From: Eubacteriales bacterium
GTDB taxonomy: Bacteria > Bacillota > Clostridia > Lachnospirales > Lachnospiraceae
Direction of reading: 5' to 3'
Length of the DNA: 64,000 nt
Assembly (NCBI GenBank): GCA_030536855.1
Contig: JAUNPK010000001.1
Location: forward strand, 130,965 to 194,964
Part shown: piece by piece, positions 4,889-63,621 of the stretch
Numbering within the stretch: position 1 is the stretch's first letter
Layout of the letters: each line of letters starts with the position of its first letter
Position numbers and translations under genes: made by a program
The notes under the pieces: generated by a model
What the model was told of the DNA's origin: nothing
Database searches by the model: none
The model's input: only the letters and a program-made list of their open reading frames with translations

Positions 4889-4895
4889 TTTTATA

Positions 4896-4931
4896 AAGAA
4901 AAAGGCAGGAGCCTGAACGCTATCCTGCCTC
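4896..4931 (-). terminator. Terminator of metK
   Basis: Minus-strand hairpin with arms GAGGCAGGA and TCCTGCCTT followed by TTTTC, 32 bases after the metK stop codon. Confidence 0.8.
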
Positions 4932-6219: not shown

Positions 6220-6370
6220 TAAAAAAACGGGCCCTTCAAAAGGACCCGACATCATCAAGATTCGAAATCCTCTTATTGTTCGAATAATCGCTCAGGTTGG
6301 CACCTTCCTGAAAAAGGGGTTGCCGGGCTTCACAGATCCTATGTATCTCCACCACTCTAAATAAGGGATA
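6220..6370 (-). promoter_or_regulatory. SAM-I (S-box) riboswitch with terminator hairpin
   Basis: On the minus strand the S-box core is readable in order: CTTATTTAGAGTGGTGGAG, GGATCTGTGAAGCCCGGCAA, AGGTGCCAACCTGAGCGA. It is followed by a terminator (arms CGGGTCCTT and AAGGGCCCG, then seven T at 6227-6221). SAM binding should favour the terminator and shut off metK, whose start codon is about 65 bases downstream. The aptamer covers roughly 6270-6368. Confidence 0.95.
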
Positions 6371-8997: not shown

Positions 8998-9052
8998 ATT
9001 TTTTTATAATTTTTTAATGGGGTCTGACCCCATTAAAAAATTATAAAAAAAT
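8998..9052. repeat. Dispersed palindrome, copy B: perfect 55-base inverted repeat
   Basis: Arms of 27 bases are perfectly complementary around a single T at 9025; the core GGGGTCTGACCCC is at 9019-9031. It ends at the stop codon of the XRE-cupin gene and could act as its terminator, since the arms contain A and T runs. Confidence 0.95.
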
Positions 9053-9609
9053 TAACGGCCATAGTCCAGGAAAAAGCATATAAAACTTGTCTTTACTTTG
9101 CCCTCATTTCTGTATTCATGCCGGCTATCCGTCTCAAATCGATACATCTGGTTGGTTTCCACCGTCTGAATCACTCCCTTGCTCTCCACTGTAAGAGTTC
9201 CTTCTGTCACAGAAAGATATTCTCTTGTCTTCTCGCCATGGGCTCCGCTCACATATACCCCGCCCGGTTCTATATCAATCCTGTAAATTTCAGCCTTATG
9301 ATTATCCTCATAAGGAAAACAGGTCCAAACCTTATATTTACCTTCCAGCTCTTTTGTAGGAACAGTCTCCTCAGGGGAGACAAGACAAAAATCCACCGGT
9401 GGAGTATCAACCAGTTCCTGAAAACTTATCCTGAGACCGCTGGCAATTTTGCCAAGTACTCCCAGAGATGGATTAGCCGTTCCCTTTTCAATCTGAGCCA
9501 GCATGCTTTTACTTACCCCAGTCTGTTCTGAAACAACATCGAGGCTCATCCCTTTCCCCATTCTTATACGATTCAAATTAACTGCGACATTATGTGCAAG
9601 ATATTCCAT
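9052..9609 (-). CDS. XRE-family transcriptional regulator with cupin domain
   Basis: 185 residues. Residues 8-65 form a Cro/C1-type helix-turn-helix (NLNRIRMGKGMSLDVVSEQTG, SKSMLAQIEKGTANPSL). Residues about 105-182 form a small cupin barrel (GGVYVSGAHGEKTREYLSVTEGTLTV). Regulators of this layout usually respond to a small metabolite and often control transport or amino-acid and polyamine metabolism. No neighbouring target is obvious. Its stop codon lies at the end of a long palindrome. Confidence 0.88.
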   Translation of the reverse strand: MEYLAHNVAVNLNRIRMGKGMSLDVVSEQTGVSKSMLAQIEKGTANPSLGVLGKIASGLRISFQELVDTPPVDFCLVSPEETVPTKELEGKYKVWTCFPYEDNHKAEIYRIDIEPGGVYVSGAHGEKTREYLSVTEGTLTVESKGVIQTVETNQMYRFETDSRHEYRNEGKVKTSFICFFLDYGR

Positions 9610-17120: not shown

Positions 17121-20105
17121 TTAAGAATTTACAATGTATTCATAGATATCTTCTCTTACTGGCACGTCAAGAATCCATTCTATTTCCACCGCAGTTTTTT
17201 CTGTATTTGCCATTGTAAATTCTTTTGTATTTCCACTAGCTGTCATATGACCAAGATAGTAAAACTCTTTCGAAATCTTATCATCCTTATTTTTGCGTAC
17301 AAAAAGTTCTACCTGAATTCCACGTTCCTTGGCTTTAAGGAAGTTCTGTACATCCTCAGACTGTAGGCTTCTTCCAGATTTAGAAATTGCAATCAAACGA
17401 TCTCTAAAGCCTGGAACAAAATGGTCTTCATATTTTGTGGTATCACTAATATCATCTGATTTGTCGTAGTTAATAAACACTGGAAATGTTTTTGTCTTTT
17501 TATCAAACTTGTAACCACCAATATTTAATGGCACCTCATTTTGTTCCCAATTCAGCAGCCGGCAAACATCTTCATAAGTATATTTCTGATATAAAACCAA
17601 ATCAGTTTGATCATAAGTCTGTCTATAATCCCTTTCATAACGACTTATACCAAAATCCACAAGTTCTTTTAGAACATTGTAAAATTCGTCATTTGACAAC
17701 AGCTCCAAAAATGCTTTTGTTGGTTTATAGTCAGCCCCTTCTTTTTCAATAAACACGCACTGAGAATAAGTTTTCTTACTAGCGCCTGCAGGGAATTCAT
17801 TCGTCATAACATTTACAATGTTTTCTTTCTGATCCTGACTGATTTCTTTTCCATACTCTTTCATATCTACAGAAAGTCCTGCAAATAAACCAAGTTTAGA
17901 CAGTCCATGAGCATATGCCAGCATTCTTTTTAATAATTGCAGTTCCTGTATGCGTTTTCCATTAGCTAATTTCTTGGATACGAATTCAATTACTTTCTCT
18001 TCATCCTCCGATAAACGAACCTTATATTCTTTCTCATATTTCACTAAGAATTTGTAGTATGAACCAAGGCTATTGTTATCAAAGATACGGAGAACATCCA
18101 TCTCACCATAATCATCAAAATCACGAAGTTTGGGAATTCTTCCAAGCTTATTCTTTAGATTCGTATAATTCTCTCTGATGAGTTTAATATCACTGAAGTT
18201 TGCATTGTCTACAGAAGCAAAGATTCTCTTTCTACTAATCTCATCAAAGTGTACCGTAGAAGCTCCAGGTATTACTCTTCCACCTTCCATTATGTATCTT
18301 CGAATATTGTCTTTGTTGTATGTTCTATCTCCCGATAACGCAATTGGAATCATAAAATTATTATTGTAGTTCCCAATGAAATCCAAGATAACAACATACT
18401 CTTTTCCAGTTGCTTTTCTAAGACCTCTACCAAGTTGTTGAATAAATACAATTGGAGACTGAGTCGGTCTGAGCATAATAACCTGATTAACTTCAACAAT
18501 ATCAACACCTTCATTCAAGATTTCAACAGAGAATATATAATCCAATGGCTGATTATCAGCAGTTGCTTCATCCTCATTCATTGCCAATCTTTCAAAAGCA
18601 TTTTGTCTTTCCATTTCCGAAGCACTCCCATTAAGTGCTATTGTTCTAAAAAGACATCCCGTAGAAGGATTAATCATCTGATTAAACTTTGCAGACAATT
18701 CTTCAGTTTCTTTTATGCTACTACAAAAGATCAGACCTTTTACTTTATCTCCACTGTACCCATAATAATCAGCTTGTGTAATAATATGCTTTACTCTCTC
18801 ATCACTAGTAAGCATCGAGAAGTCTCGACTGGCTTCTTCATTATCACCAATAATTGATAAATCTGTTATTCCAAAATAGTGAAATGGACACAGGAGATTT
18901 TCTTCCATTGCCTGTTGTAAACGAATCTCGTATGCGATCTGGTAATTGAATAGTTCATAAACATTTCTGCCTTCTACATTATCATCTCTTTTATCTGGAG
19001 TCGCAGTCATTCCCAACCAAAGCTTTGGCGTAAAATGTTTCATTACTTTCTGATATGTATCAGCCGGAACATGATGAGCTTCATCTAAAACAATGCAATC
19101 AAATGCATCTTTTTCATATTGAAGTAAATGCTCATCACGATTCAACGTCTGAACTGTTGCAAAAACATAGTCTGCATCGTATTCGTGATAACCAGCTCCT
19201 ACAAGTCCCATGGAGACAGAATTTGCAAAAACTTTTTCATAAGATTTCTTTGTCTGTCTTGCTAATTGGCCTCTATGAACTAGAAATAAGACTCTCTTAA
19301 AACCTAATTCTCTCATTGCAAATGCTGATGCATAAGTTTTACCTGTACCTGTAGCAGAAATTAAGAGTGCTCTATCTTCTCCTGCTTCAAGTATTTTCTT
19401 TAGATTTGTAATAAATCCAACCTGCATACTATTAGGTTGCAACTTATACTTTTCAATCGAAGTAATCTCTTCTTGTTTTGCAACCTCTCTTTGATGTTTA
19501 ATGATGCTATATCGAGCTTTATAATTCTCATAAAAATCATCAAAAGATAACGCATATTTTGAGTTCCACAACTGATTGAACTCAGCAACTATTTCTTTAG
19601 CCACTTCACCTTGTTCCGTTGAAATCAGCTTTGTATTCCACTCTCTATTGCTTGTGAGTGCTGCACTTGTAATATTTGAACTGCCAATGATAATACGATA
19701 GATCTCGTCCTTTTTAAAAATATATCCTTTTGTATGAAATCCTTCGTCAGCAACTTCAACATCATACATTTTGAGTGTAATATTTGATAACTCGTTAAGC
19801 CTTTTCAAAGCTCTTGGCTCACTAAAATTCAAATAATTCGTTGTCAGAATTTCGCCTTTGATATTCTTCTTTTCCAGTTCCTTCAATGTCTGAAGAAGCG
19901 GAGTGATACCACTCATTGTAATGAAAGCCACACTAATCTGAAAACCATCGCATGCCAAAAGCTCATCCTCTATGGATGAGAGTACTTTCTTTCCTTCTCT
20001 ATGGTTGTTTGACACAAACTGTGGTCGATATACACTACTTGAAACAACAGAGCCATCTATATATGCAGTTTCAAAGCCTAATCGCACTTCATCAATCTTA
20101 CTCAT
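17121..20105 (-). CDS. PLD-nuclease, DEAD-box helicase and DUF3427 fusion
   Basis: 994 residues from the ATG at 20105; a GTG three codons earlier lacks spacing for the GGAG. Domains in order: phospholipase-D-like nuclease (residues about 40-190, with FHTKGYIFKKDE and IIGSSNITSAAL, the HxK...GSSN signature), superfamily-2 helicase (Walker A SATGTGKTYAS near 255, DEAH box LDEAHHVPADTY, motif VI QQLGRGLRKATGKEYV), and a DUF3427-type C-terminus. Such fusions occur in bacterial defence and repair islands. It is co-directional and tightly spaced with MazG-like, DUF2075 and Nudix genes. The exact substrate is unknown. Confidence 0.92.
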   Translation of the reverse strand: MSKIDEVRLGFETAYIDGSVVSSSVYRPQFVSNNHREGKKVLSSIEDELLACDGFQISVAFITMSGITPLLQTLKELEKKNIKGEILTTNYLNFSEPRALKRLNELSNITLKMYDVEVADEGFHTKGYIFKKDEIYRIIIGSSNITSAALTSNREWNTKLISTEQGEVAKEIVAEFNQLWNSKYALSFDDFYENYKARYSIIKHQREVAKQEEITSIEKYKLQPNSMQVGFITNLKKILEAGEDRALLISATGTGKTYASAFAMRELGFKRVLFLVHRGQLARQTKKSYEKVFANSVSMGLVGAGYHEYDADYVFATVQTLNRDEHLLQYEKDAFDCIVLDEAHHVPADTYQKVMKHFTPKLWLGMTATPDKRDDNVEGRNVYELFNYQIAYEIRLQQAMEENLLCPFHYFGITDLSIIGDNEEASRDFSMLTSDERVKHIITQADYYGYSGDKVKGLIFCSSIKETEELSAKFNQMINPSTGCLFRTIALNGSASEMERQNAFERLAMNEDEATADNQPLDYIFSVEILNEGVDIVEVNQVIMLRPTQSPIVFIQQLGRGLRKATGKEYVVILDFIGNYNNNFMIPIALSGDRTYNKDNIRRYIMEGGRVIPGASTVHFDEISRKRIFASVDNANFSDIKLIRENYTNLKNKLGRIPKLRDFDDYGEMDVLRIFDNNSLGSYYKFLVKYEKEYKVRLSEDEEKVIEFVSKKLANGKRIQELQLLKRMLAYAHGLSKLGLFAGLSVDMKEYGKEISQDQKENIVNVMTNEFPAGASKKTYSQCVFIEKEGADYKPTKAFLELLSNDEFYNVLKELVDFGISRYERDYRQTYDQTDLVLYQKYTYEDVCRLLNWEQNEVPLNIGGYKFDKKTKTFPVFINYDKSDDISDTTKYEDHFVPGFRDRLIAISKSGRSLQSEDVQNFLKAKERGIQVELFVRKNKDDKISKEFYYLGHMTASGNTKEFTMANTEKTAVEIEWILDVPVREDIYEYIVNS

Positions 20106-20121
20106 TTGCTTCACTCCATTT

Positions 20122-20442
20122 TTATAACTGATCGTACTTATCTGATTTTCCTTTTGCTTTCTCTACTGGATACTTTTCCTCATTCATAGTCATCTTCATA
20201 TTTACAATCTCATCCGCATCCAAACCGAGCTTATCAAGCAGATTCTGACTATATACCATGACATCCGCTAACTCTTCTTTAATATGCTTCAAGTCATACT
20301 CCTCATCCGACCATTGAAAACATTCCAATAATTCTGCAGCTTCAATGACAATTGATTTTGCCAAATTTGCTGGCGAATGAAATTGATCCCAATCACGATC
20401 CTCTGTAAATTTCCTAATTCTGTCTATGGTTTCTTTTTTCAT
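20122..20442 (-). CDS. MazG-like nucleotide pyrophosphohydrolase
   Basis: 106 residues, a short all-helical MazG-type protein. The metal-binding pattern is present: EAAELLECFQW (ExxE) and LADVMVYSQNL (ExxD with the preceding KEE). The segment DWDQFHSPANLAKSIVIEAAEL is typical of the DUF/RS21-C6-like subgroup. These enzymes hydrolyse nucleoside triphosphates. Gaps of 10 and about 16 bases to its neighbours indicate a shared transcript with the two helicase-nucleases, suggesting nucleotide depletion or sanitising as part of the same response. Confidence 0.9.
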   Translation of the reverse strand: MKKETIDRIRKFTEDRDWDQFHSPANLAKSIVIEAAELLECFQWSDEEYDLKHIKEELADVMVYSQNLLDKLGLDADEIVNMKMTMNEEKYPVEKAKGKSDKYDQL

Positions 20443-20452
20443 AATTACCTCT

Positions 20453-22318
20453 CTATTTCAGGCATTCTCTTAAATGATCTGCCAAATTTTTATCTGTACA
20501 GTACACATAACATCCCTTCATTCCTCTGGTCATTAGGGTACGATATGTATTTTTAATGATCTCGTCCGCTTCTTTTAAAGCAAACTCTGGATTTTCTTTA
20601 TATAATTTTTTAATACCTTTTAAAGATTGATCTGTTTTAGCCCTCTTAGTAAAATCAGTAACTATATGACCATTTTCATATCTCATATCATCACCGATAA
20701 TTACACCTGCATAATCAAATTCAAGTCCTTGAGACGTATGGATACAACCAACTTCATTCACAGAGTTCTCATCAATTGCAAAAGTTGAAGTATTGCCAAG
20801 ATTCCAACTCATTTCAAAATCGCCTATTTTTATATCATGAACATCAGAGTTGTTCTGGCCTTCTTTTAACCATGCCCAACAATATCCTGCCAAAATTCTT
20901 GATTGATTTCTTGTTTTATTACACTCTATTATTAAATCTCGAACCTCGTTTGGTGAATCCATAATACGGATGTCATAATCTATATCTTTCAAATCAAAAT
21001 TTGCAGTTTCTCTGATTTCCAAAACGTCATCCAGCCATGCCAAGTAGCCGTCAGAGCCATCACACCTAAACTGTGATACAAGCTCCATCTCCTGCACTTC
21101 CGAATCGAGTTCATCTGCCCACTTTACAATTTCAGAAACAGTACCAATATCACTAAGTGTTACACGTTGACTCTCATCAATGAAGAAAACGCTACAGAGA
21201 CTTGCATTAATAATTTCCTTAATCTGATTTTCTCCAGCAATTTTGGGCCCAAGCTGAGTCTTTGCTGTAAGTCTATGCCCTTCATCACAGATAATGGTAT
21301 CTACAATATTGGGTTCAGCTTCAATGTAAGATCCTGCACCTTTAAACATATTTTTAATACTACTTTTCTTATGGCCTGTTAACTTCTTTTCATACACATT
21401 TCGTGGCGCACTATTCTTCGATGTATACTGTGCAAATAGTCCTTCATTTGTAAGCTTGGCTAAAAGATTAATTGCTACAACTGTTTTACCTGTTCCCGGC
21501 CCACCTTTCACAATAACAGTGCGCTTTTTCTGATCTGACATACATTTTAACGCCGTCTTTATTATTTCCTCATATACAACCTTTTGCTCATCCAGCATTA
21601 TGAATTCCTGATTGCCCTCAATCATGCTTTTGATAGAGTTCTGTAGGCTTTTTGAAGGCTTGATTTTTCCATTATCAATATCATACAAAAGTTGTTTATC
21701 ATCACCTACTTTTACCGATTGCTTAATAAACTCACGCAGTTTTGAAACTTCACCTCTTGCAAAAATAGGTGCGTCCTCAACATATTCCTTGTATTGGTTT
21801 TGTTCTAGTTTCTCCGGATTACTTTTTCTATAATTGTGCATATATGCGCATGGATGAAGAACGATATTTCCCATCTGCACATTTTGATTATAGTCGTAAA
21901 TCATTGCAGCATATGACCATGCTTGATAAGATGGATGTACAACTTTACGCACTGCCCCACCAGTATAGGTTTCAACTAATGCATCCTGACCTTCCACAAC
22001 CTCGACTTTATCCCATTGCTTCAATTCGATGATTACCACATTCGGATCTTGTTTTTCTCCATATCCCGAAATAATGAAATCCACTCTCTTGGAAGTCTGT
22101 GGAATGTTGTATTCTATTGCCACTCCAGAATTCTCTGGAATTGCAGTATCATTCAAAACCTTATACATATATTCTAAGGAGTTTTCCCATGAACGAAATT
22201 CATTTTGGGCAGTTCTTCTATGCATTTTATTATAAATATTTTCTTCTATTTCAGCAGCAATTGAATCCTGTTCTACTGCAGTTAAAAAGTCTCTTTTTAT
22301 CCCAGAATATACTATCAT
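20453..22318 (-). CDS. DUF2075 (Schlafen-like) helicase with N-terminal PD-(D/E)XK nuclease domain
   Basis: 621 residues. The N-terminal 230 residues contain a nuclease core (KRVDFIISGYG ... NVVIIELKQWDKVE, the D...ExK pair). The C-terminal part is a superfamily-1-like DUF2075 ATPase: Walker A VKGGPGTGKTVVAINL near 270, Walker B TIICDEGHRLT, FFIDESQRV, SQFRCDGSDGYLAWL, HTSQGLEFDYAGVIIGDD and the final YRTLMTRGMKGCYVYC. It probably unwinds and cuts nucleic acid. The start codon directly follows the stop of the small HTH gene. Confidence 0.92.
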   Translation of the reverse strand: MIVYSGIKRDFLTAVEQDSIAAEIEENIYNKMHRRTAQNEFRSWENSLEYMYKVLNDTAIPENSGVAIEYNIPQTSKRVDFIISGYGEKQDPNVVIIELKQWDKVEVVEGQDALVETYTGGAVRKVVHPSYQAWSYAAMIYDYNQNVQMGNIVLHPCAYMHNYRKSNPEKLEQNQYKEYVEDAPIFARGEVSKLREFIKQSVKVGDDKQLLYDIDNGKIKPSKSLQNSIKSMIEGNQEFIMLDEQKVVYEEIIKTALKCMSDQKKRTVIVKGGPGTGKTVVAINLLAKLTNEGLFAQYTSKNSAPRNVYEKKLTGHKKSSIKNMFKGAGSYIEAEPNIVDTIICDEGHRLTAKTQLGPKIAGENQIKEIINASLCSVFFIDESQRVTLSDIGTVSEIVKWADELDSEVQEMELVSQFRCDGSDGYLAWLDDVLEIRETANFDLKDIDYDIRIMDSPNEVRDLIIECNKTRNQSRILAGYCWAWLKEGQNNSDVHDIKIGDFEMSWNLGNTSTFAIDENSVNEVGCIHTSQGLEFDYAGVIIGDDMRYENGHIVTDFTKRAKTDQSLKGIKKLYKENPEFALKEADEIIKNTYRTLMTRGMKGCYVYCTDKNLADHLRECLK

Positions 22319-23484: not shown

Positions 23485-23988
23485 TTACTCCTTTTTGCCC
23501 GGAAATGCCCTGTTTTCTAGGATTATTGATATTTGCTCATTACGCAACTCCTGCATCCATTTATCCAAAAATCTCATCTGTTCCTCCGTATGAAACCAGT
23601 GTTCTCCGCCCTCCATTACCGTAAGCCCGGCACCGGTTTTCTGCACAAAATCATTCATTGTATCTATTGATTGCAGATTATCATTGCTTCCATAAAGTAT
23701 TTCTGTTGGTACATTCCAGCTAATCCTATGATTTCTAACATATTGAAGATATTCCCAAGATAAATCATCGCCAAAACCAACAGGAATCACTTTTCTGTCT
23801 TCTAACTCTCCTTCAGTTGTGCCTGCCCGGGAAATCATATCAACTATCAGCCTTTCAAGATTCACAATCGGGGAAATGAAGTATGCTTTTTCAATATAAT
23901 CACAAATTTCTGCATTCATGGAAAAGTAAGCTCCTATGCTTCCGGCGACAAGAACTATCTTACTATAAGTTTTAGTCACTTCCTTAAT
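23485..23988 (-). pseudogene. Truncated C-terminal copy of the GNAT-hydrolase fusion gene
   Basis: Encodes only the last 160 or so residues of the hydrolase domain (KTYSKIVLVAGSIGAYFSM ... GGEHWFHTEEQMRFLDKWMQELRNE) with the longer tail QISIILENRAFPGKKE. It is nearly identical to the end of the complete gene at 30716-31867. This copy probably keeps the original 3' end, because the phosphatase start follows at once. There is no credible start of its own. Confidence 0.85.
23534..23988. repeat. 455-bp direct repeat, left copy
   Basis: Matches 30723-31177 at constant offset with one difference that I can see (G at 23947 against A at 31136). The two copies bound the FtsZ-containing island. Confidence 0.95.
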
Positions 23989-23991
23989 ATA

Positions 23992-24996
23992 TTAAATATT
24001 ATATTTTGCCAACAGAAAATCTATTACTTTTTTTGATTCTTCAACCGAAAGATACGGAACCTTTGTTGTTTTAGCCCAAAAGAAATTTTTGTTTAATAAT
24101 TCTCTTAATTCAGCAACAGTCACATACTCAAGATCATCTTCACAAGAAACTACTGGAGTAAGCAATTCAACATCCAAATACAGTTCTTCCTTTGCTTTAT
24201 TCTCTTTTGCTTTTGATGACTTTACTATACCAGCACCAACTACCCCATATCCCTTATGATAATACAAAACGTAATCACCTTTATTAAAGGATTTTACACA
24301 TGTTTTTACACTACCATAGGCACTGACTTTGCTATTCTTAAACATATCCCAAATATCATTAGGTCCATATGTCTTATTTGTATCAAACAAAATGCCTTTT
24401 GTATCTGCTACGTTAATATGATAATCATATGGCTTTGCAAAAAACTCAAAATAAGTTTCACCTTGAATTTTATAAAATCTATACGGAATATAATCAATAT
24501 CTATTCCACTATGTCGCCAATAATCAATGGCATCCATTAAATATGAATCAACCGAACTACCTATTACTACCAACTTCTGCTTTCGATTAAATTCCTCAAT
24601 CTGAAGCGGATTATCAAGTCCAAATGCCTCTGCATGCGCTTCTCTCAAATCGTCATTACCAGTATATGTATTATATAGTTTTGCCAATTCGAAATAACTC
24701 TTTTGTCCGTAATCTTGACAATAACGCATTACTTGAATTGTAGTATCACCTGGAACAAGCGCACGCTTTAATTCAAAAATAATCAAATTACCGTCTTTAT
24801 CAAGCGCACATAGATCTGGTTCACTTTGCCAATTTCTTTCTCGGAAAATAGGCATAAGTTGCCCATCCTCAGAGTATAAGTCTGCAAGGTTATTTGCCAA
24901 CAAATCTTCTAAATCTTTTTCTAGCCCACCCAAATCTTCATAATTGTAACTTGGAAGCATTTCAATATTATCTTTTCCATTGTATCTATAGAGCAT
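23992..24996 (-). CDS. NucS/DUF91-like endonuclease with PUA/EVE-like C-terminal domain
   Basis: 334 residues. The N-terminal half has LEKDLEDLLANNLADL, then EPDLCALDKDGNLIIFELKRALVPGDTTIQVMRYCQDY, the D...ExK core of NucS-type nucleases. The C-terminal part (KGDYVLYYHKGYGVVGAGIVKS, then ELYLDVELLTPV) resembles the PUA/EVE fold that binds modified bases. It may cut modified or mismatched DNA. It is the last gene of the minus-strand set in the island; its end is at the repeat boundary. Nuclease call is good, EVE-like call is tentative. Confidence 0.75.
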   Translation of the reverse strand: MLYRYNGKDNIEMLPSYNYEDLGGLEKDLEDLLANNLADLYSEDGQLMPIFRERNWQSEPDLCALDKDGNLIIFELKRALVPGDTTIQVMRYCQDYGQKSYFELAKLYNTYTGNDDLREAHAEAFGLDNPLQIEEFNRKQKLVVIGSSVDSYLMDAIDYWRHSGIDIDYIPYRFYKIQGETYFEFFAKPYDYHINVADTKGILFDTNKTYGPNDIWDMFKNSKVSAYGSVKTCVKSFNKGDYVLYYHKGYGVVGAGIVKSSKAKENKAKEELYLDVELLTPVVSCEDDLEYVTVAELRELLNKNFFWAKTTKVPYLSVEESKKVIDFLLAKYNI

Positions 24997-25065
24997 AATC
25001 TCACCTACTTTAATTTGATAATTGCATTATACTACAGAAAGATATTCTCGTAAACACAATAATGG

Positions 25066-25215
25066 CTAATTGTTAATAATCCTCTCGTACCTCTCAGCAT
25101 GAAGAATGGTTACTTCCTTCTCATCCTTGTACTGAATCTGGTAAATCTCATCTTCCAGCTTCTCCACACAAAGAATCTCCTTGCATTCCACATCCCAAAG
25201 ACCATCAACGTGCAT
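25066..25215 (-). pseudogene. Possible small gene or remnant between nuclease and AAA+ genes
   Basis: A 49-codon frame beginning MHVDGLWDVECKEILCVEKL and ending ILHAERYERIINN has protein-like, charged composition but no ribosome-binding site. The frame continues upstream to a stop at about 25250 without another start. It is probably the end of a decayed gene. The overlapping frame 25110-25325 in another phase looks less protein-like. Confidence 0.35.
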
Positions 25216-25314
25216 TGCATTAAAAAAGGTAAGCCAGCATACTTTCGAATCATTTCATCTGACCACATTTGGACTAATTGCCAATTATATGCTTCCATTA
25301 CATTGACTATTACA

Positions 25315-27342
25315 TTAAAATCCAATTACTTTACGTTCTTTCTCTGCGGTTTCCTTAATTCCAAGATCATTAAAATCTTCTGCTACTAACGTTCTCAGCT
25401 CTTTTTCTGAAGGCTGCTCTGTATTTTTTGCTATTCTCAATGTTTGATTCATTAATGCCTGTTCATATATATTTCTGACAAAACGCCCATTTCCGAAGTC
25501 TTTATGTTTGCATGCGTGTCCGAATATTTCAATAACTTTATCATGAACATCCTCAGATAGTTTCACACCTGACTTTGTCGCCATTGATACTAATATTTCA
25601 TATAACTCTTCTTCTGTATAATCATCGAAATTAATATGAAACGCTATCCTGCTTGTAAGACCCGGATTCGTATCAAGAAATTGCTGCATCCTATCCGGAT
25701 ATCCTGCAAGTATAACAATAATATCTTCCCTGTTATTCTCCATCTCCTGAACAAGAGTATTAATCGCTTCATCTCCATATAAACCTCTTCTGTCATCCAC
25801 AAGAGAATAAGCCTCATCAATAAACAAAACATTTCCCTTAGCCCTTCTGAACAAACTCTTAACTTTAGGCGCCGTCTGTCCTACATATTCCCCTACAAGA
25901 TCAGCTCTTCCCGCCTCTATTAATGCTCCTTCTGATAGTATTTTATTGTCTTTAAAAATGTCAGCAAATAATCGTGCAACTGTTGTCTTTGCAGTACCTG
26001 GATTACCGGTAAACACCATATGTACAGCACTTAAAGGTGGTTTCATCCCATTCGCACGATATATTTCTCTTGTATTATAATAACTTATAATCTTATCTAT
26101 AATGTTTTTAGGCTTGTTAAGGCCTATCATAGATTTAAGTTCCTGATATGCATTTCCTTCTCGTTCTTTAATCCGTTCTATATGTTTTGTCTGATACTCT
26201 GCATACTGGGAATATATATCTGAACACAAAATGTTTCCCAGGCATTTATGTATTCTTGCATCAAGTTCATCTGGATAATAATCTATATCATCTGCTATAT
26301 CTATTTTGTCTCCAACCGATTCATCTATGTTCTTTTCTATCAAATCTCTTCTTATATATTCTCTTGCTTCACATCCTCTGTATGTATTTTGTTTTATTTC
26401 ACAAAAATTAGTGTTAGGAGCACTATCCTTAATCAAATCCTTTATTCTTTCGCTACCACGCTTAACAAAAACAAATGTCAGTACATTTGACGAATGTTCC
26501 TCTATCATCAATCCCATCTTATCTGCTGCCTTACGCAATCTATTCTTGTCATACTCATTATCAATATCTCTAATATTAGGAATAACAATCCCTACACTTG
26601 AGGCCTCACAATAAGAGTATCCATATGTTTCATCCTGATCCGTCAGTAATCCCGATATCCATATTCTGCTACTTTTTAACCTGTTCTGCTTATACAATGC
26701 TGCCATTATAATTTTTGCAATCTCATATCCTACACCATTTTTATTGCATATTATTATATATTGCACCGGATTTCCCAGATAATTAGTAGAATTTCTGTTA
26801 GTAAATATTCTTTCCAATTCCGGAAGCAATGTCTCTGAACAATTAAGTTTTACTGCTTTATCGTATAATTGTTTCTTTAAAATTTTTGTATCAACATTTA
26901 TTTCACGACACTTATTTCTTCTCTCTCCATTTTTCATAAAATCACAACTAAAAAATCTGTCTATTACATCATAGTCAAGATGAAACAATCTGCTTTTCAT
27001 TTTACTAACCCGTTCATATGTAGTCTCTCGAATATTAAAATCATATATTTTCATGCCACATTTTTCAGTATACCCATATATATGCTTAGCAGCATCTTCT
27101 TTATAATTTTTAGAAATAACCCTGAATTCTACTCTGCCATTAGATGTATCCGTATCTATATAACACACGAATACAACAACACTATACTCATGTTCACTGG
27201 AATACTCTATTGCGTAATCCTCCAATTCGCACCATATTTCCTCCTGATGTTTAGACGCACTTCTTTCTTCATCATTATTTTTTAAATATTTTTCTAAAAT
27301 TCTGCAACTTTCAATCTTAGCAGAAGCCTCGTAAAATAACAT
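25315..27342 (-). CDS. CbbX/SpoVK-like AAA+ ATPase with long N-terminal region
   Basis: 675 residues. The C-terminal 280 residues are a CbbX-type AAA+ module: Walker A FTGNPGTAKTTVARLF near residue 425, pore-loop region RADLVGEYVGQTAPKVKS, Walker B VLFIDEAYSLVDD, sensor ILAGYPDRM, arginine finger region NPGLTSRI, and second region GNGRFVRNIYEQAL. Residues about 185-270 (IIICNKNGVGYEIAKIIMAAL ... VGIVIPNI) look like a degenerate first AAA domain without a true Walker A. The first 150 residues are unrecognised. Members remodel protein complexes. A clear -10 TATAAT but weak -35 lies in the 27343-27478 gap, which could need the WYL regulator. Confidence 0.88.
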   Translation of the reverse strand: MLFYEASAKIESCRILEKYLKNNDEERSASKHQEEIWCELEDYAIEYSSEHEYSVVVFVCYIDTDTSNGRVEFRVISKNYKEDAAKHIYGYTEKCGMKIYDFNIRETTYERVSKMKSRLFHLDYDVIDRFFSCDFMKNGERRNKCREINVDTKILKKQLYDKAVKLNCSETLLPELERIFTNRNSTNYLGNPVQYIIICNKNGVGYEIAKIIMAALYKQNRLKSSRIWISGLLTDQDETYGYSYCEASSVGIVIPNIRDIDNEYDKNRLRKAADKMGLMIEEHSSNVLTFVFVKRGSERIKDLIKDSAPNTNFCEIKQNTYRGCEAREYIRRDLIEKNIDESVGDKIDIADDIDYYPDELDARIHKCLGNILCSDIYSQYAEYQTKHIERIKEREGNAYQELKSMIGLNKPKNIIDKIISYYNTREIYRANGMKPPLSAVHMVFTGNPGTAKTTVARLFADIFKDNKILSEGALIEAGRADLVGEYVGQTAPKVKSLFRRAKGNVLFIDEAYSLVDDRRGLYGDEAINTLVQEMENNREDIIVILAGYPDRMQQFLDTNPGLTSRIAFHINFDDYTEEELYEILVSMATKSGVKLSEDVHDKVIEIFGHACKHKDFGNGRFVRNIYEQALMNQTLRIAKNTEQPSEKELRTLVAEDFNDLGIKETAEKERKVIGF

Positions 27343-27478
27343 AATCCCACACCTTTCATATAGCTAATAACTTTTGTATCTGTTATTAATTATACGAAAG
27401 ACATGGGACTATATTGGTACATGATATTTTGAGTTAATATTCTTTTTTTGCATTCCATCATTCCATCCTCATTGTATT

Positions 27479-28516
27479 TTATTTATACCGCTCTAACGCC
27501 TGTCGAAAATCCTCGATGACCTGTTCTACAAGACTATCCGGACTCACAATCGTAATATGTCTTGCATATTGTGTTGCAAAACATCTCATAGCCATAATAT
27601 TTGCATGAACTGTTACCATTACCTCATCTTCTGAATAATCAGAAAATTTGATATCTTTTCCAAACCAGTCAAGAAGCTCAGATATAATATATCGATATGC
27701 CCTGAAACGGACCATTCCACTTTCGCCGGAAAACATATATATATGGTCAGCCATATGCTTTGAAAGATTTAATCCATTCTCCAACCCTTTAACTTTCTTC
27801 ATTGTTTTTCTTTTCGTGTCTAACAGCTCAATATCCGTTATCCAGTCAATCCTGTAATTGGCATAATTATCATATTTATCATAATTGCATATTAAATAAT
27901 ACCTACCATTCGTAGCAACCATCTGATATGGATTAATTATATATTCCCTTGGCACCCCTTCACTATTACTTCTATTATGAAGCTTATAATCCGTATCATA
28001 ATAGTTATAACGAAACTTTACCTGTTTTCCTTTACTTATTGCCTCATCTAATATTTCAATATTGTAAAACAGCTGCTTATTAATAAGTGGATTTTCCTGT
28101 AGATTGCATATATGTTTCACACTTGACTTAAAATAACGATTTGACAGACTTTCTAATTTTTCAATAAGTTCAGAACACTGTTTGTATGGTATTGATTTTG
28201 AAAAAAGCAGACTATCTATAAGAAGTCTCAACTCTGAATTACTGAATGTTCTCTCTATATACCAATCTGTGTATATTGTCTCATGGTCTCCATTCTTCTT
28301 TATTCGAACCTGCTCTGAATATTCAATATCATAACCACATTCTAAAAGATATGACAGATTTCTTCTTACCGCTTTCCTGTCTACTTCCATACTGTAATCT
28401 CTTCTAAGAATATCAATAAAATCTTTCTGTTTTAATCTGTGTTCAGCATCTGAATATTTGTTAAGAATATCAAGTATATTAACAATCAGTAGTTTTTTCG
28501 GCATTGCTTCATACAT
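27479..28516 (-). CDS. WYL-domain transcriptional regulator
   Basis: 345 residues. N-terminal winged helix (LNKYSDAEHRLKQKDFIDILRRDYSMEVDRKAVRRNLSYL), then a WYL ligand-sensing domain (GKQVKFRYNYYD, REYIINPYQMVATNGRYYLICNYDKYDNYANYRIDWI). The C-terminal WCX extension (YRYIISELLDWFG ... CFATQYARHITIVSPDSL) is present. WYL proteins control defence islands and often sense nucleic acids or nucleotides. It starts 12 bases after the protease gene, so it belongs to the XRE-protease operon, and it may control the AAA+ and nuclease genes downstream. Confidence 0.92.
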   Translation of the reverse strand: MYEAMPKKLLIVNILDILNKYSDAEHRLKQKDFIDILRRDYSMEVDRKAVRRNLSYLLECGYDIEYSEQVRIKKNGDHETIYTDWYIERTFSNSELRLLIDSLLFSKSIPYKQCSELIEKLESLSNRYFKSSVKHICNLQENPLINKQLFYNIEILDEAISKGKQVKFRYNYYDTDYKLHNRSNSEGVPREYIINPYQMVATNGRYYLICNYDKYDNYANYRIDWITDIELLDTKRKTMKKVKGLENGLNLSKHMADHIYMFSGESGMVRFRAYRYIISELLDWFGKDIKFSDYSEDEVMVTVHANIMAMRCFATQYARHITIVSPDSLVEQVIEDFRQALERYK

Positions 28517-28527
28517 ATTATTATCCT

Positions 28528-28956
28528 CTATTCTTCAACTACAATATTATAATCAAGAACCTGCTTAAGCAGATAATTACTCATATTTAACACTTTAATA
28601 TTAAAATCACTTTCGTTAAATAATAAAGATACCGCAAAGAGATTAGCCTCATATTCAACATTTCTAAATGCATTCTTACTTGTTACTGCAAAATTATTAA
28701 TATCGTCTGAATGAAGCAGTGCATGTCCTAATTCATGCGCACATAATACCATCTGACTTCTACGCTCATATCTACCATTAATAATTATTATAGTAGGATA
28801 ATTATCAGACTTTATCGTATATGCTTTTCTATCAACTGGAAGCATTTCACTTACAACTACCCTTATTCCAAATCTTTCTGCTAATTTAAAAGGGTCTCTT
28901 GTGTTATAATTCTCCCTTAAATCTTCCGCCAGTTTCTTTACATCTTTGGCCTTCAT
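28528..28956 (-). CDS. ImmA/IrrE-type metallopeptidase
   Basis: 142 residues. The zinc-binding motif CAHELGHALLHS (HExxH) is intact near residue 73, followed by the third ligand in NVEYEANLFAVSLL. Enzymes of this type cleave an XRE-family repressor on a stress signal, as ImmA does to ImmR in ICEBs1 and IrrE/PprI to DdrO. The gene starts just 9 bases after the XRE gene ends, the arrangement expected of a repressor and its protease. Cytoplasmic. Confidence 0.93.
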   Translation of the reverse strand: MKAKDVKKLAEDLRENYNTRDPFKLAERFGIRVVVSEMLPVDRKAYTIKSDNYPTIIIINGRYERRSQMVLCAHELGHALLHSDDINNFAVTSKNAFRNVEYEANLFAVSLLFNESDFNIKVLNMSNYLLKQVLDYNIVVEE

Positions 28957-28964
28957 ACTGTCAC

Positions 28965-29372
28965 CTACCTGTACTTATAACTTACAAGCTGTAACTGCTG
29001 TAAGATTTCATTTGCAAATGCAACCATTGTTTCATCATCCATCTTAGACGGATCATATCCTCCATATGCTGCCACAGTTGGAAGCTTAAGCAAGAACTCC
29101 ATAGCTTCTTTAGGATCTTCAAATTTTTCTGAAAGTTTATCATCATTATCACTTTCAGAATGTGACTTTTCTGGTACATTTCCCATCATCTCTGCCGGTG
29201 TTGTTCCAAGAATATTACACATTTTTTCAAATGTTGAGACAGGAATCTTAACAATACTTAAATCCTCATATCTATACACTGTGGATACTGATACGCCTAA
29301 CTCTTTTGCAATATACTCTACAGATATCTTCTTTTCTTTTCTCTTTGCCTTTAGTCTCTGCCCTAATTCCAT
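28965..29372 (-). CDS. XRE-family repressor
   Basis: 135 residues. N-terminal Cro/C1-type helix-turn-helix (LGQRLKAKRKEKKISVEYIAKELGVSVSTVYRYED), a Pro/Ser/Asp linker near residues 70-90 that could hold the cleavage site, and a helical C-terminus. It sits beside an ImmA-type protease and opposite the ftsZ-like gene, with four palindromic operators between. It is probably the repressor of both directions. Confidence 0.92.
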   Translation of the reverse strand: MELGQRLKAKRKEKKISVEYIAKELGVSVSTVYRYEDLSIVKIPVSTFEKMCNILGTTPAEMMGNVPEKSHSESDNDDKLSEKFEDPKEAMEFLLKLPTVAAYGGYDPSKMDDETMVAFANEILQQLQLVSYKYR

Positions 29373-29412
29373 ATATGCTTAATCTCCTAAACACTCTTTT
29401 TATATTAAATTA

Positions 29413-29521
29413 ATTGTACTATTTCTCTGCATTTATGCAAGTATTTTTTGCAATAATGCAATTATATGTTGACATATTTGCATTATTGCATTATATTTTT
29501 TTTATAATTAGCATTTATGCA
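29413..29521. promoter_or_regulatory. Divergent promoters with four TGCA-N4-TGCA operators
   Basis: Operators: TGCATTTATGCA 29428-29439, TGCAATAATGCA 29449-29460, TGCATTATTGCA 29479-29490 and AGCATTTATGCA 29510-29521. The ftsZ-side promoter is TTGACA (29469-29474), 17 bases, TATATT (29492-29497); operator three fills its spacer. The xre-side promoter on the minus strand is TTGCAT (29435-29440), 16 bases, TACAAT (29413-29418); operator one covers its -35. This predicts tight repression in both directions by the XRE protein. Confidence 0.85.
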
Positions 29522-29552
29522 AATCTAATAAGAACATTTAAGGAGAATAAAA

Positions 29553-30677
29553 ATGCTTGAAATAATCAATACAGACTATCAATCATCAAATATGCCTATT
29601 ATTAAAGTTATCGGCGTCGGTGGTTGCGGTAATAATGCAATTAACAGACTGGCACACCAGACTCCATACCCTATTCAATTCATTGCTATTAACACTGATC
29701 AGATGGTACTTGACAGATCTGGAGCGGACACATGTATTACTATTGGGAAAAAAATTACCGGCGGTTTTGGTGCCGGTGGAAATCCAGAAATTGCGTATGC
29801 TGCCGCCGAAGAAAGTGCAGACGAAATTAAAGAGATTGTAAATGATGCAAATATGGTAATTCTCACTGCCGGTATGGGAGGGGGCACAGGTACTGGTGCT
29901 CTACCATATATTGCTAAGATATGTAAGGACTTAGGAATACTTACTGTTGCTGTTGTTACCACCCCATTTAGTTTTGAAAATACCAACCGTTCTGATGTCG
30001 CACATGCAGGTATCCAAAAACTTGAAAAATGTGTTGACACTTTACTTGTAATCTCCAATGATAAACTACTTACATCCAATGAAAAAATAGTAACAATGTC
30101 ATCTGCATTTACTCTTGCAGACTCTGTATTAAAGAATTCAATTGACACTATTACCAATATTGTGTTTAACTGTGGTACTGTCAATCTCGACTTCAATGAC
30201 TTAAAAACTGTTCTTGGAGACAAGGGGTATGGACACTTAGGTATAGGATATGCCGATGAGAACACCTCTATTACCGATGCTATCAAACAGGCTATTAATT
30301 CGCCTCTACTAAACACCAATCTTTCCGGTGCAAAATATGTTATGATTAATTCATCCGGAGATGTTAATCTTGTTGAACTTAATAATGCAATCCGATATAT
30401 TCAGGAAATTGTCGGAACTGATGCTAAAATAATGTGGGGAACCGTCTCTTCTAAGGAGCAATTAGACGATAATAAAAATTCTCTTATAACTATTATTGCA
30501 ACGGGTCTTGATGGAACTTATGATCCTAATAGAATTAGCCTGAAAAACTGTTCTGTAAAAAGCACTCATGATCCTGTTAAAACATCATCTGCCATAAATG
30601 ATCTTTTAGCCAAATCTGAAAAAAAAGAAAATGAACTCGTTATTCCAACTTTCCTGCAATCAAGAATGAGAAAATAG
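29553..30677 (+). CDS. Accessory FtsZ paralogue in a genomic island
   Basis: 374 residues, FtsZ-like over its length. The tubulin signature GMGGGTGTGALP is intact, nucleotide loop IGVGGCGNNAINRL is present, and the synergy loop reads NLDFNDLKTVL, close to the NxDFxD needed for GTP hydrolysis between subunits. The C-terminus VIPTFLQSRMRK resembles the conserved peptide by which FtsZ binds FtsA, ZipA-like or SepF partners, after a very short linker. AAGGAG precedes the start. No division genes are near; it is divergent from an XRE-ImmA pair. It could co-polymerise with host FtsZ and disturb division. Confidence 0.93.
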   Translation: MLEIINTDYQSSNMPIIKVIGVGGCGNNAINRLAHQTPYPIQFIAINTDQMVLDRSGADTCITIGKKITGGFGAGGNPEIAYAAAEESADEIKEIVNDANMVILTAGMGGGTGTGALPYIAKICKDLGILTVAVVTTPFSFENTNRSDVAHAGIQKLEKCVDTLLVISNDKLLTSNEKIVTMSSAFTLADSVLKNSIDTITNIVFNCGTVNLDFNDLKTVLGDKGYGHLGIGYADENTSITDAIKQAINSPLLNTNLSGAKYVMINSSGDVNLVELNNAIRYIQEIVGTDAKIMWGTVSSKEQLDDNKNSLITIIATGLDGTYDPNRISLKNCSVKSTHDPVKTSSAINDLLAKSEKKENELVIPTFLQSRMRK

Positions 30678-30715: not shown

Positions 30716-31867
30716 TCATATATGCTCATTACGCAACTCCTGCATCCATTTATCCAAAAATCTCATCTGTTCCTCCGTATGAAACCAGTGTTCTCCGCCC
30801 TCCATTACCGTAAGCCCGGCACCGGTTTTCTGCACAAAATCATTCATTGTATCTATTGATTGCAGATTATCATTGCTTCCATAAAGTATTTCTGTTGGTA
30901 CATTCCAGCTAATCCTATGATTTCTAACATATTGAAGATATTCCCAAGATAAATCATCGCCAAAACCAACAGGAATCACTTTTCTGTCTTCTAACTCTCC
31001 TTCAGTTGTGCCTGCCCGGGAAATCATATCAACTATCAGCCTTTCAAGATTCACAATCGGGGAAATGAAGTATGCTTTTTCAATATAATCACAAATTTCT
31101 GCATTCATGGAAAAGTAAGCTCCTATGCTTCCGGCAACAAGAACTATCTTACTATAAGTTTTAGTCACTTCCTTAATCTTTGCCAAAAATTCTTCTTTAG
31201 CATCCCACGGATTCTCAGATTTATAATCAAAGCCGTATACATCAAAACCTTCGAAAAACTGTCTGTAATGTTCCGATTCGATTGCGCTGCCACCTTTTCC
31301 GTGAATATAAAGAACTAACTTCTTATCCTGATTATTTTTCCACTGCTCTTTCGTAAGATACGTAAAATGTTCAGTTCTTACATCTCCCATGAGCACACAA
31401 GGCTTATTTTCTTCCGTGTGATGATACGTGAAACCACACTTCTCCTGGCATCGTTTTGACCTTTCATTTCCATCATAATAACCACACCACATAGCATTGC
31501 ATCCCAAATCTAAAAATGCATGCTTCTGTAATTCTCGGACCGCCTCCGGAATCAGCCCTCGTCCCCAGAAAGGAACGCCTATCCAATATCCAATTTCTAT
31601 TTCTTCGTCAGCTGCTTCTGTATGTGACTGAGCCGGTGGAATTAATCCAATACTTCCAATTGGTACATTATCTTCTTTCAAGCATACAGCATAGGTTTCA
31701 TCTGCTGATAAAACACTCTTGATAATTTCCCTGCTATTTTCTACACTTGTATGCACCGGCCATCCAGCTATGGGACCAACTCTGGGATCTTTCGCATATT
31801 TATATAAGCTAGTTGCATCATCCTCTTTCCATGGACGAAGTATCAATCTTTCTGTTTCAAAAATCAT
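30716..31867 (-). CDS. GNAT acetyltransferase fused to an alpha/beta hydrolase
   Basis: 383 residues. Residues 1-175 are a GNAT N-acetyltransferase of the RimJ/RimL type (TERLILRPWKEDDATSLYKYA, GYWIGVPFWGRGLIPEAVREL, GYYDGNERSKRCQEKCGF). Residues about 190-383 are a small alpha/beta hydrolase (LVLYIHGKGGSAIESEHYRQF, nucleophile-elbow-like VAGSIGAYFSM, late EGGEHWFHTEEQ with a His). The 3' end was replaced by insertion of the island: this copy ends RNEHI, while the original tail survives in the left repeat. Substrate unknown. Confidence 0.85.
   Translation of the reverse strand: MIFETERLILRPWKEDDATSLYKYAKDPRVGPIAGWPVHTSVENSREIIKSVLSADETYAVCLKEDNVPIGSIGLIPPAQSHTEAADEEIEIGYWIGVPFWGRGLIPEAVRELQKHAFLDLGCNAMWCGYYDGNERSKRCQEKCGFTYHHTEENKPCVLMGDVRTEHFTYLTKEQWKNNQDKKLVLYIHGKGGSAIESEHYRQFFEGFDVYGFDYKSENPWDAKEEFLAKIKEVTKTYSKIVLVAGSIGAYFSMNAEICDYIEKAYFISPIVNLERLIVDMISRAGTTEGELEDRKVIPVGFGDDLSWEYLQYVRNHRISWNVPTEILYGSNDNLQSIDTMNDFVQKTGAGLTVMEGGEHWFHTEEQMRFLDKWMQELRNEHI
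30723..31177. repeat. 455-bp direct repeat, right copy
   Basis: Partner of 23534-23988; lies within the 3' half of the complete GNAT-hydrolase gene. Confidence 0.95.
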
Positions 31868-35534: not shown

Positions 35535-35617
35535 AAAAGGGGGTCTGACCCCATTAAAAAACTATAAACAATTTCATAAAAAGTTTATAAAAATTTAATG
35601 GGGTCAGACCCCCTTTT
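35535..35617. repeat. Dispersed palindrome, copy C: two cores in inverted orientation
   Basis: Cores at 35540-35552 and 35600-35612. The 35-base arms (35535-35569 and 35583-35617) are inverted copies with four mismatches around a 13-base centre, and each arm contains its own palindrome. It lies between the GGDEF and MATE genes. Confidence 0.92.
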
Positions 35618-35632
35618 CGACCCTTTACCATC

Positions 35633-41312: not shown

Positions 41313-41393
41313 GAAAGGGGTCAGACCCCATAAAATTTTTATAAACTTTTTCTGGAAAAGTTTATAAAAATTTTATGGGGTCTGACCCCTTTC
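41313..41393. repeat. Dispersed palindrome, copy E: perfect 38-bp inverted arms
   Basis: Arms 41313-41350 and 41356-41393 are perfectly complementary with a five-base loop TCTGG. Each arm contains a core (41317-41329 and 41377-41389). Lies directly after the sugar-phosphate mutase gene. Confidence 0.97.
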
Positions 41394-41406
41394 TCCCTTT
41401 CTCCAA

Positions 41407-63594: not shown

Positions 63595-63621
63595 AATTAT
63601 TTATTGAGATATTAGCTGTTA

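What the first reader, a model, noticed from the sequence alone, without database searches (positions are those of the whole stretch)
23992..30677. Candidate undescribed system: accessory FtsZ with XRE, ImmA/IrrE protease, WYL regulator, AAA+ ATPase and NucS-like nuclease
Seen: one island codes for an FtsZ with intact GTPase loop and C-terminal peptide, divergent from a repressor-protease-WYL operon, followed by a CbbX-like AAA+ with a degenerate extra AAA domain and a nuclease with PUA/EVE-like tail. Known: ImmA/IrrE proteases cut XRE repressors upon stress; WYL regulators mark defence loci; FtsZ is a common target of division-blocking toxins and phage proteins. Inferred: on infection or DNA damage the repressor is cut, the second FtsZ floods the cell and poisons or decoys the division ring, while AAA+ and nuclease act on invading DNA.
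Basis: partly seen in the sequence, partly recalled or inferred. Interest (0 to 1): 0.88.

Follow-up and report, generated by a model that had tools for sequence, protein, structure and literature searches.

The report
Second FtsZ with repressor-protease switch
Some bacteria of the gut family Lachnospiraceae carry a spare copy of the cell-division protein FtsZ that seems to be locked behind its own repressor and repressor-cutting protease, which suggests a stress-triggered way to change cell division.

Summary
But the conserved unit is three genes: ftsZ2, divergent from an XRE repressor-ImmA protease pair. In an 84,980-species scan with the XRE, 20 of 21 loci (all Lachnospiraceae by title or kinship) have ftsZ2 directly divergent from it. 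In 397 family genomes the full-length XRE and ftsZ2 were found in the same 5. FtsZ2 is one clade (100/99) apart from 40 other FtsZ; catalytic residues are kept, but a set of positions near the T7 loop and interdomain cleft is consistently changed. The shared promoter region carries GCA-N4-TGC operators (62 in 23 loci, 2.0 expected) and a sigma-A-like ftsZ2 promoter (21 of 23, 0.4 expected). WYL, AAA+ and nuclease are an add-on in Lachnospira, with the nuclease swapped between species. Best reading: a stress switch (ImmA cuts XRE, by analogy on ssDNA) that releases FtsZ2 to change the Z ring, perhaps as a division brake. Regulation is inferred from sequence; signal and effect on division are not shown. 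Paper listings seen show no such module.

The parts
29553..30677 (+). ftsZ2: accessory FtsZ, 374 aa, core of the module
   Evidence: second FtsZ of the genome; one clade with 22 other FtsZ2
29469..29497 (+). sigma-A-like promoter of ftsZ2 (TTGACA, 17-base spacer, TATATT), with one operator in the spacer
   Evidence: a promoter of this kind in 21 of 23 loci, shuffle mean 0.4
29429..29520 (.). four GCA-N4-TGC operator-like palindromes at 29429, 29450, 29480 and 29511 between ftsZ2 and XRE
   Evidence: 62 sites in 23 loci, 2.0 expected; the only cluster of three or more within 200 bases in the window
28965..29372 (-). XRE repressor, 135 aa, with conserved C-terminal part (AAYGGYD...FANEIL..LVSYKY)
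28528..28956 (-). ImmA/IrrE-type (M78) zinc protease, 142 aa, HELGH motif
   Evidence: only PDB match at E 0.01 or better is CapP 7t5t
27479..28516 (-). WYL regulator, 345 aa; part of the add-on module
25315..27342 (-). SpoVK/CbbX-like AAA+ ATPase, 675 aa; part of the add-on module
25110..25325 (-). truncated remnant of a 206-208-aa gene that is intact in L023 and L024
   Evidence: DNA homology to L024 ends at 25252
23992..24996 (-). PDC-S11-type nuclease, 334 aa, weakly NucS/EVE-like; differs from the PDC-S02 protein of L. eligens
23529..23988 (.). left copy of the 460-bp direct repeat (3' part of the GNAT-hydrolase gene)
30718..31177 (.). right copy of the 460-bp repeat, inside intact GNAT-hydrolase gene 30716-31867(-)

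Best explanation
A self-contained stress switch whose output is a second FtsZ. In growing cells the XRE protein binds GCA-N4-TGC operators in the shared promoter region and keeps both ftsZ2 and its own XRE-ImmA operon low (inferred from operator and promoter sequences). Under stress, most likely single-stranded DNA from DNA damage or infection, ImmA cuts XRE (by analogy with ImmA/ImmR, IrrE/DdrO and CapP/CapH). The sigma-A-like promoter then makes a burst of FtsZ2. FtsZ2 keeps the GTPase and the C-terminal peptide, so it should enter or compete with the host Z ring. Its changed residues near the T7 loop and interdomain cleft should give filaments of different dynamics, which I take to slow or reshape division until the stress is over (a guess). 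In Lachnospira the same switch has also captured a WYL-AAA+-nuclease module, so those genes would be switched on with it.
For: Linkage: XRE scan of 84,980 species gave 21 loci, 20 with ftsZ2 directly divergent. In 397 family genomes the full-length XRE (E 1e-18 or better) and FtsZ2 (E 1e-141 or better, one FtsZ1 false hit removed) lie in the same 5, each of which also has another FtsZ. FtsZ2 clade 100/99, in 100% of 200 bootstrap trees. Operators 62 against 2.0 expected, promoter 21 of 23 against 0.4. The strict motif has 7 rows in the whole genome: 4 rows (3 sites) here, 3 elsewhere, reversed control 0. dN/dS 0.05-0.10 for five genes. FtsZ2-XRE distance correlation 0.72, Mantel p 0.0002, n 18. 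GTPase residues and both T7 aspartates kept; 12-residue signature 10-12 of 12 in 24 FtsZ2 rows (one a duplicate) and at most 3 in the other FtsZ. Literature passages: ssDNA activates PprI/IrrE and CapP (PMC10904395; PMC13373217); ImmRA-type switches respond to DNA damage (PMC10233336).
Against: No expression, binding, cleavage or division data. The signal is by analogy only: ImmA's one PDB match is CapP, weakly (E 0.0019), and its best PADLOC match is RmrA, not CapP (4.6e-15 against 8e-12). L086 has XRE and ftsZ2 but no ImmA in the 2.3 kb held beyond the XRE; L085 has an XRE without ftsZ2; L058 has a truncated ftsZ2 without XRE. A complete operator overlaps the promoter in only 4 of the 21 loci with a promoter. 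L070 has no perfect operator. Three of the 12 signature residues (F186, T297, V298) are also what S. aureus FtsZ has. The mirror-tree correlation is partly due to common descent. The cleft changes could equally serve resistance to an inhibitor.
Confidence: 0.45

Rival explanations
1. Backup ring: FtsZ2 is a substitute that keeps division going when FtsZ1 is blocked by a phage protein, a host peptide or a plant compound. A changed interdomain cleft makes it insensitive.
For: Five of the 12 signature positions align with S. aureus FtsZ residues named as contacts of the inhibitor berberine in the interdomain cleft (Asp199, Leu200, Val203, Met226, Val297; passage of PMC7167804, alignment); at four of the five FtsZ2 differs from S. 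aureus. C-terminal peptide and GTPase residues are kept.
Against: At the fifth position (V298) FtsZ2 has the S. aureus residue, and T297 and F186 also match it; I lowered this rival from 0.22 to 0.20 for that. The literature passages tie ImmA-type switches to DNA damage rather than to division block. No inhibitor or phage link was found; the viral-contig scan gave no relative.
Confidence: 0.2
2. Abortive-infection effector: FtsZ2 poisons the ring on infection so that the cell dies or stops before phage release, alongside the nuclease and AAA+.
For: The window copy lies beside a type IV restriction enzyme and an SLFN-type helicase and next to WYL, AAA+ and PDC nuclease genes. CapH-CapP pairs control immune operons (passages).
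Against: Many other carriers have ftsZ2-XRE-ImmA alone beside what look like housekeeping genes (by eye). A simple poison would not need intact GTPase, T7 and C-terminal peptide (inference).
Confidence: 0.15
3. Specialised division mode: FtsZ2 serves a developmental or asymmetric division, and the repressor-protease pair responds to a physiological cue other than DNA damage.
For: Apparently the same site in L077 and L079 (by eye). Strong purifying selection.
Against: Patchy occurrence: 5 of 397 family genomes and 3 of 22 genomes of the genus, at mostly different sites.
Confidence: 0.1
4. Maintenance or spread gene of a mobile element (a TubZ/PhuZ-like role), and FtsZ2 is cargo of that element.
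For: The window copy is bracketed by a 460-bp direct repeat. The L. eligens copy is on a 627-kb plasmid.
Against: It is a true FtsZ, not TubZ/PhuZ (NCBIfam 2.5e-95 against PHROG PhuZ 0.0014). I saw no integrase, relaxase or rep gene directly beside the three genes (by eye, not searched). The viral-contig scan gave none.
Confidence: 0.05

Closest known systems
ImmR-ImmA of ICEBs1/TnSmu1, CapH-CapP, DdrO-IrrE/PprI
   Same: XRE-type repressor with adjacent M78 protease (HExxH), operator-like repeats at a shared promoter region; works like a derepression switch
   Different: The divergent gene is an FtsZ; no conjugation, CBASS or DNA-repair genes in the three-gene unit. Close full-length relatives of this XRE were found only in Lachnospiraceae; plasmid and phage records give near-full-length matches only at about 30% identity
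Housekeeping FtsZ of Lachnospiraceae
   Same: GTPase site, T7 aspartates, C-terminal peptide
   Different: Separate clade, own residue signature, mostly shorter linker, stand-alone gene beside its own repressor
Dual FtsZ systems (chloroplast FtsZ1/FtsZ2, archaeal FtsZ1/FtsZ2; search listing and starts of abstracts only)
   Same: Two FtsZ types in one cell, possibly with different filament dynamics
   Different: Here the second FtsZ is accessory, patchy and probably stress-induced, in bacteria
SulA/YneA-type SOS division inhibitors (recalled, no call)
   Same: Possible role: halt division during DNA damage
   Different: Those are inhibitors or membrane peptides; here the candidate modulator is an FtsZ itself and control does not appear to be by LexA
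Makarova-Koonin FtsZ-like families (PMC2875224, one passage and start of abstract seen)
   Same: FtsZ superfamily members beside the housekeeping FtsZ
   Different: Those are described as new, diverged families; FtsZ2 is above the NCBIfam cut-off for FtsZ proper

Membership tests
ImmR-ImmA / CapH-CapP / DdrO-IrrE switch | XRE-type HTH repressor adjacent to an M78 protease in one operon | tested here: met
   side by side in 17 of 21 loci; 2 more cut by contig ends after the XRE, 2 without ImmA found
ImmR-ImmA / CapH-CapP / DdrO-IrrE switch | Zinc-binding HExxH in the protease | tested here: met
   HELGH invariant in the 7 aligned proteins
ImmR-ImmA / CapH-CapP / DdrO-IrrE switch | Repressor operators at its own and the target promoter | tested here: inconclusive
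   Operator-like repeats and ftsZ2 promoter found by sequence; full overlap in 4 of 21; XRE's own promoter not scored; binding not shown
ImmR-ImmA / CapH-CapP / DdrO-IrrE switch | Protease cuts the repressor, stimulated by ssDNA or DNA damage | not testable with these tools
   Needs biochemistry
CapH-CapP of CBASS | Close relation to CapH/CapP and control of a CBASS operon | tested here: not met
   CapH 1.8e-4 and CapP 8e-12 in PADLOC, both behind other families; 7t5t E 0.0019; no CBASS gene named among the 15 proteins scanned
FtsZ | NCBIfam TIGR00065 above cut-off; GTPase and T7 catalytic residues | tested here: met
   319.8 against 295.2 bits; conserved residues
FtsZ | Essential division protein of its host | not testable with these tools
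   Another FtsZ is present in 7 of 7 module carriers searched, so probably accessory
TubZ/PhuZ | Closer to TubZ/PhuZ than to FtsZ | tested here: not met
   PHROG PhuZ E 0.0014 against FtsZ 2.5e-95
NucS endonuclease | Curated NucS score | tested here: not met
   27.1 bits against 216; Pfam NucS_C 13.5 against 24
   No WYL or AAA+ match in the other module loci except L023/L071 and L024 (flanks of limited length); WYL+AAA+ occur without ftsZ2

The most novel reading that the evidence does not exclude
An SOS-independent division checkpoint made of an FtsZ paralogue: a three-gene cassette in which proteolytic loss of a dedicated repressor releases a second FtsZ that co-assembles with the host ring through a changed longitudinal interface and interdomain cleft, halting or re-timing division during DNA damage or infection, and which has become a landing place for defence modules.
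Probability: 0.35. Interest if true: 0.9.

Novelty: new variant of a known kind. Interest (0 to 1): 0.76.

Why it matters
Most bacteria are thought of as dividing with one FtsZ, held back in stress by inhibitors of it. A dedicated, repressed second FtsZ would be a different way of controlling division, would give a natural variant for studying Z-ring dynamics, and would extend the known outputs of repressor-protease DNA-damage switches from mobile elements, repair and immunity to the division machine. L. eligens ATCC 27750, a cultured gut bacterium, carries it, so it can be tested directly.

Tried and rejected
The six-gene order as the unit: rejected, because WYL and AAA+ lie within 5 kb of each other in 7 of the 27 genomes with the best WYL hits (G324, G350, G317, G123, G399, G384, G148) and none of these 7 has an intact FtsZ2 (G399 has a truncated one on another contig, L058), while ftsZ2-XRE-ImmA stands alone in other genera.

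Phage origin: 24 phage records match FtsZ at under 60%. The four of 24 fetched (H1, H2, H3, H5) are 'UNVERIFIED' faecal scaffolds whose FtsZ have 0 of 12 FtsZ2 signature residues and no XRE or ImmA match, so they look like ordinary bacterial FtsZ; the other 20 were not looked at. The viral-contig scan gave none. XRE matches 16 phage records, 1 of them over 80% of its length, at 28%.

Empty site of the window insertion: not resolved; at the DNA level the GNAT-hydrolase region is absent from 18 of 22 genus genomes and only partial in 3 others.

G248 appeared as a borderline FtsZ2 hit; its residues and neighbours show an ordinary FtsZ. G341 matches the XRE only over residues 4-95 and has one FtsZ.

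Limits of the counts: the XRE and FtsZ2 family searches score at most 10 and 4 first-look candidates per genome with strict E-values, so misses are possible. Rows dropped before the tree and signature choice: truncated L058, partial L021 and L022, divergent L113, and L087 as a duplicate of L057; L023, L068 and L069 were left out as duplicates of L071, L073 and L080. One search listed 14 positions conserved in FtsZ2 and rare in the others; I used 12 and left out P15 and C124. The signature was chosen on the same rows it scores; only L136, the four phage-labelled and the three outgroup rows are independent (0-3 of 12). Linker length could not be read in 1 of 23 FtsZ2 and 7 of 40 FtsZ1 rows.

Paper searches matched parts of unrelated words (such as 'immature') and are of little value.
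Full report
What is there. The genome (G000, 2.40 Mb, 54 contigs) has a second FtsZ on contig C27. The genus includes [Eubacterium] eligens: genome G001 carries the cassette on a contig of the same length and at the same coordinates as plasmid NC_012780.1 of ATCC 27750, where the genes are annotated as ftsZ (WP_012740536.1), helix-turn-helix regulator, ImmA/IrrE protease, WYL protein, hypothetical protein and AAA ATPase. The window is therefore from a Lachnospira (inference from kinship).

What is conserved. In the 22 genomes held of the genus, close (90%) relatives of the window's FtsZ occur in two more, G013 and G001; the other FtsZ are about 45-52% identical. G008 keeps only a scar: the last 45 residues of FtsZ2 and part of the 206-aa gene between the same flanking genes. 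Both full relatives have ftsZ | XRE-ImmA-WYL, then a 336-aa protein (PDC-S02 in L024), then AAA+ and a 206-208-aa gene. The window lacks the PDC-S02 gene and has only a remnant of the last gene, with a PDC-S11 nuclease instead. So the nuclease slot varies.

The core. An XRE profile (4 rows) searched in 397 genomes of the family matched 6 at E 1e-18 or better: five full length and one partial (G341). All five, and not G341, have a second FtsZ directly divergent from the XRE and ImmA after the XRE. The reverse search with an FtsZ2 profile at E 1e-141 or better found those same five plus G248, and G248's hit is an ordinary FtsZ. Both searches score a limited number of candidates per genome. 20 of 21 have FtsZ2 beside the XRE; ImmA is beside it in 17 of 21, two are cut by contig ends, and in L085 and L086 none was found. 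Four of these loci have the contig lengths of G handles (L071=G013, L073=G163, L080=G059, L087=G376), so the counts are not additive. A class-wide search (391 genomes) found no full-length XRE outside the family, only partial matches over residues 1-80. The scan depends on two short peptide patterns, so more distant relatives could be missed.

Where it sits. The sites differ: antiporter-like genes (L068), glyS-like and other housekeeping genes (L069), KAP-NTPase-like and hsdR-like genes (L070), metabolic genes (L072, L074), an apparently shared site in strain C7 and Lachnobacterium bovis (L077, L079), and a 627-kb plasmid in L. eligens (apart from the plasmid, names are by eye from the sequences). 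Among the loci WYL and AAA+ are attached only in the window genus. WYL-AAA+ pairs exist without intact FtsZ2 in 7 of 27 family genomes examined; in the two neighbourhoods read a DUF2779/Cas4-like protein lies between them (the L059 protein by Pfam and PADLOC; the L060 one by likeness).

The FtsZ2 clade. A maximum-likelihood tree of 23 FtsZ2, 40 other Lachnospiraceae FtsZ and 3 outgroups puts all FtsZ2 on one side of a branch (100/99; 100% of 200 bootstrap trees), with the outgroups on the other side. Several branches are long and the root is not known. GTP-binding residues, the T7 aspartates (D213, D216) and P365/F367 of the C-terminal peptide are conserved in both groups. Fourteen positions are conserved in FtsZ2 and rare in FtsZ1; leaving out P15 and C124, twelve lie from 186 on: F186, I197, N202, I203, N206, N215, L217, L221, L229, W295, T297, V298. 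FtsZ2 rows have 10-12 of the twelve, the FtsZ1 rows at most 3 (the signature was chosen on most of these rows). By the alignment to S. aureus FtsZ five of them correspond to residues listed as interdomain-cleft contacts of berberine (passage of PMC7167804); at four of these five FtsZ2 differs from S. aureus, while V298, T297 and F186 are the S. aureus residues. N215 lies between the two aspartates. Passages of PMC8456036 say that the T7 loop inserts into the next subunit and that the cleft size varies with nucleotide state. The linker is mostly shorter: 31-107 against 61-134 residues (1 of 23 and 7 of 40 not readable).

The switch. The intergenic regions of 23 loci (L089 cut to 220 bases) carry 62 GCA-N4-TGC palindromes; dinucleotide shuffles give a mean of 2.0 and at most 7 in 200. 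22 of 23 have at least one; L070 has none. In the window the four sites are the only cluster; nine GCAW4TGC sites are in the window in all. The strict form TTGCAWWWWTGCA has 7 rows in the whole genome: 4 rows (3 distinct sites) here and 3 single sites elsewhere, against 0 for the reversed control. A TTGAC-N17 to N19-TAnnnT promoter facing ftsZ2 is present in 21 of 23 (shuffle mean 0.4, maximum 3 of 23). A full operator overlaps it in 4 of those 21; in others half-sites overlap or the operators lie beside it. The window's promoter and sites were read back in the sequence. Between the window and L. eligens, ftsZ2, XRE, ImmA, WYL and AAA+ show dN/dS of 0.05-0.10 at similar dS of 0.71-0.87. FtsZ2-XRE, FtsZ2-ImmA and XRE-ImmA distances correlate over 18 loci (r 0.72, 0.46, 0.73), which fits inheritance as a unit but is confounded by descent.

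How it probably works. Shown by sequence: physical linkage, operator-like repeats, promoter, intact catalytic motifs, purifying selection, a distinct clade. Inferred: XRE represses both operons and ImmA cleaves XRE. By analogy only: the trigger is ssDNA, as for PprI/IrrE and CapP (passages of PMC10904395 and PMC13373217), or DNA damage, as for ImmRA elements (passages of PMC10233336). Guess: FtsZ2 slows or re-times division. The cleft changes keep a backup ring, insensitive to FtsZ inhibitors, as the strongest rival.

What is known. Searches for FtsZ with ImmA/IrrE (162 papers, 25 listed), second or dual FtsZ (48 papers, 25 listed), accessory FtsZ with repressor terms (0 papers), CapH-CapP (8 papers) and L. 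eligens with ftsZ (22 papers, 8 listed) showed no title or abstract start on a bacterial ftsZ-XRE-ImmA module; searches matched mostly unrelated words. Only open-licence PMC papers were searched. The repressor-protease switch is a known kind; an FtsZ as its output is, as far as these listings go, new.

The window insertion. The island lies between 460-bp repeats, one inside an intact GNAT-hydrolase gene and one a detached 3' part. This looks like integration by single crossover of a circle carrying the gene end, or a duplication; no relative with the empty site was found. The left neighbours are a type IV restriction enzyme, a MazG-like gene and an SLFN-type helicase.

Noticed in passing
window 23529-23988 and 30718-31177: 460-bp direct repeat (458 of 460 identical) brackets the island; one copy completes the GNAT-hydrolase gene, the other is a detached 3' part. 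Possible single-crossover integration.
   Followed up: partly
window 17121-22318 (-): Type IV methyl-directed restriction enzyme (PADLOC 1.2e-211), MazG-like protein and SLFN-g3/DUF2075 helicase in a row: a likely defence neighbourhood.
   Followed up: partly
L059 3419-8258; L060 4135-9164: An AAA+ - DUF2779/Cas4-like - WYL module in other Lachnospiraceae, without ftsZ2; AAA+ and WYL lie within 5 kb in 7 of 27 genomes examined.
   Followed up: partly
L075 3085-8847: Two XRE-ImmA pairs 3.6 kb apart with one ftsZ2, a partial PDC-S02 match and an ATPase-like gene between them: looks like a duplication of the control pair.
   Followed up: no
L025 5537-6079 (G008:C67): Scar of a lost cassette: remnants of the 206-aa gene and of the FtsZ2 C-terminus between the same flanking genes as in L. 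eligens.
   Followed up: partly
L058 7972-8691 (G399:C27): Truncated FtsZ2-like gene without XRE or ImmA beside it; probably a remnant.
   Followed up: no
window 4862-4901, 8998-9053, 35535-35618, 41313-41395, 63498-63602: Family of similar short inverted repeats, perhaps MITE-like elements.
   Followed up: no
G000 C20:102069, C21:21768, C26:36668: Three single strict operator-like sites elsewhere in the genome; they may or may not belong to the XRE regulon.
   Followed up: no
L089 1930-4245: Module with swapped order, ImmA before XRE, ftsZ2 still divergent.
   Followed up: no
window 6270-6367 (-): SAM riboswitch (RF00162, 66.6 bits).
   Followed up: no
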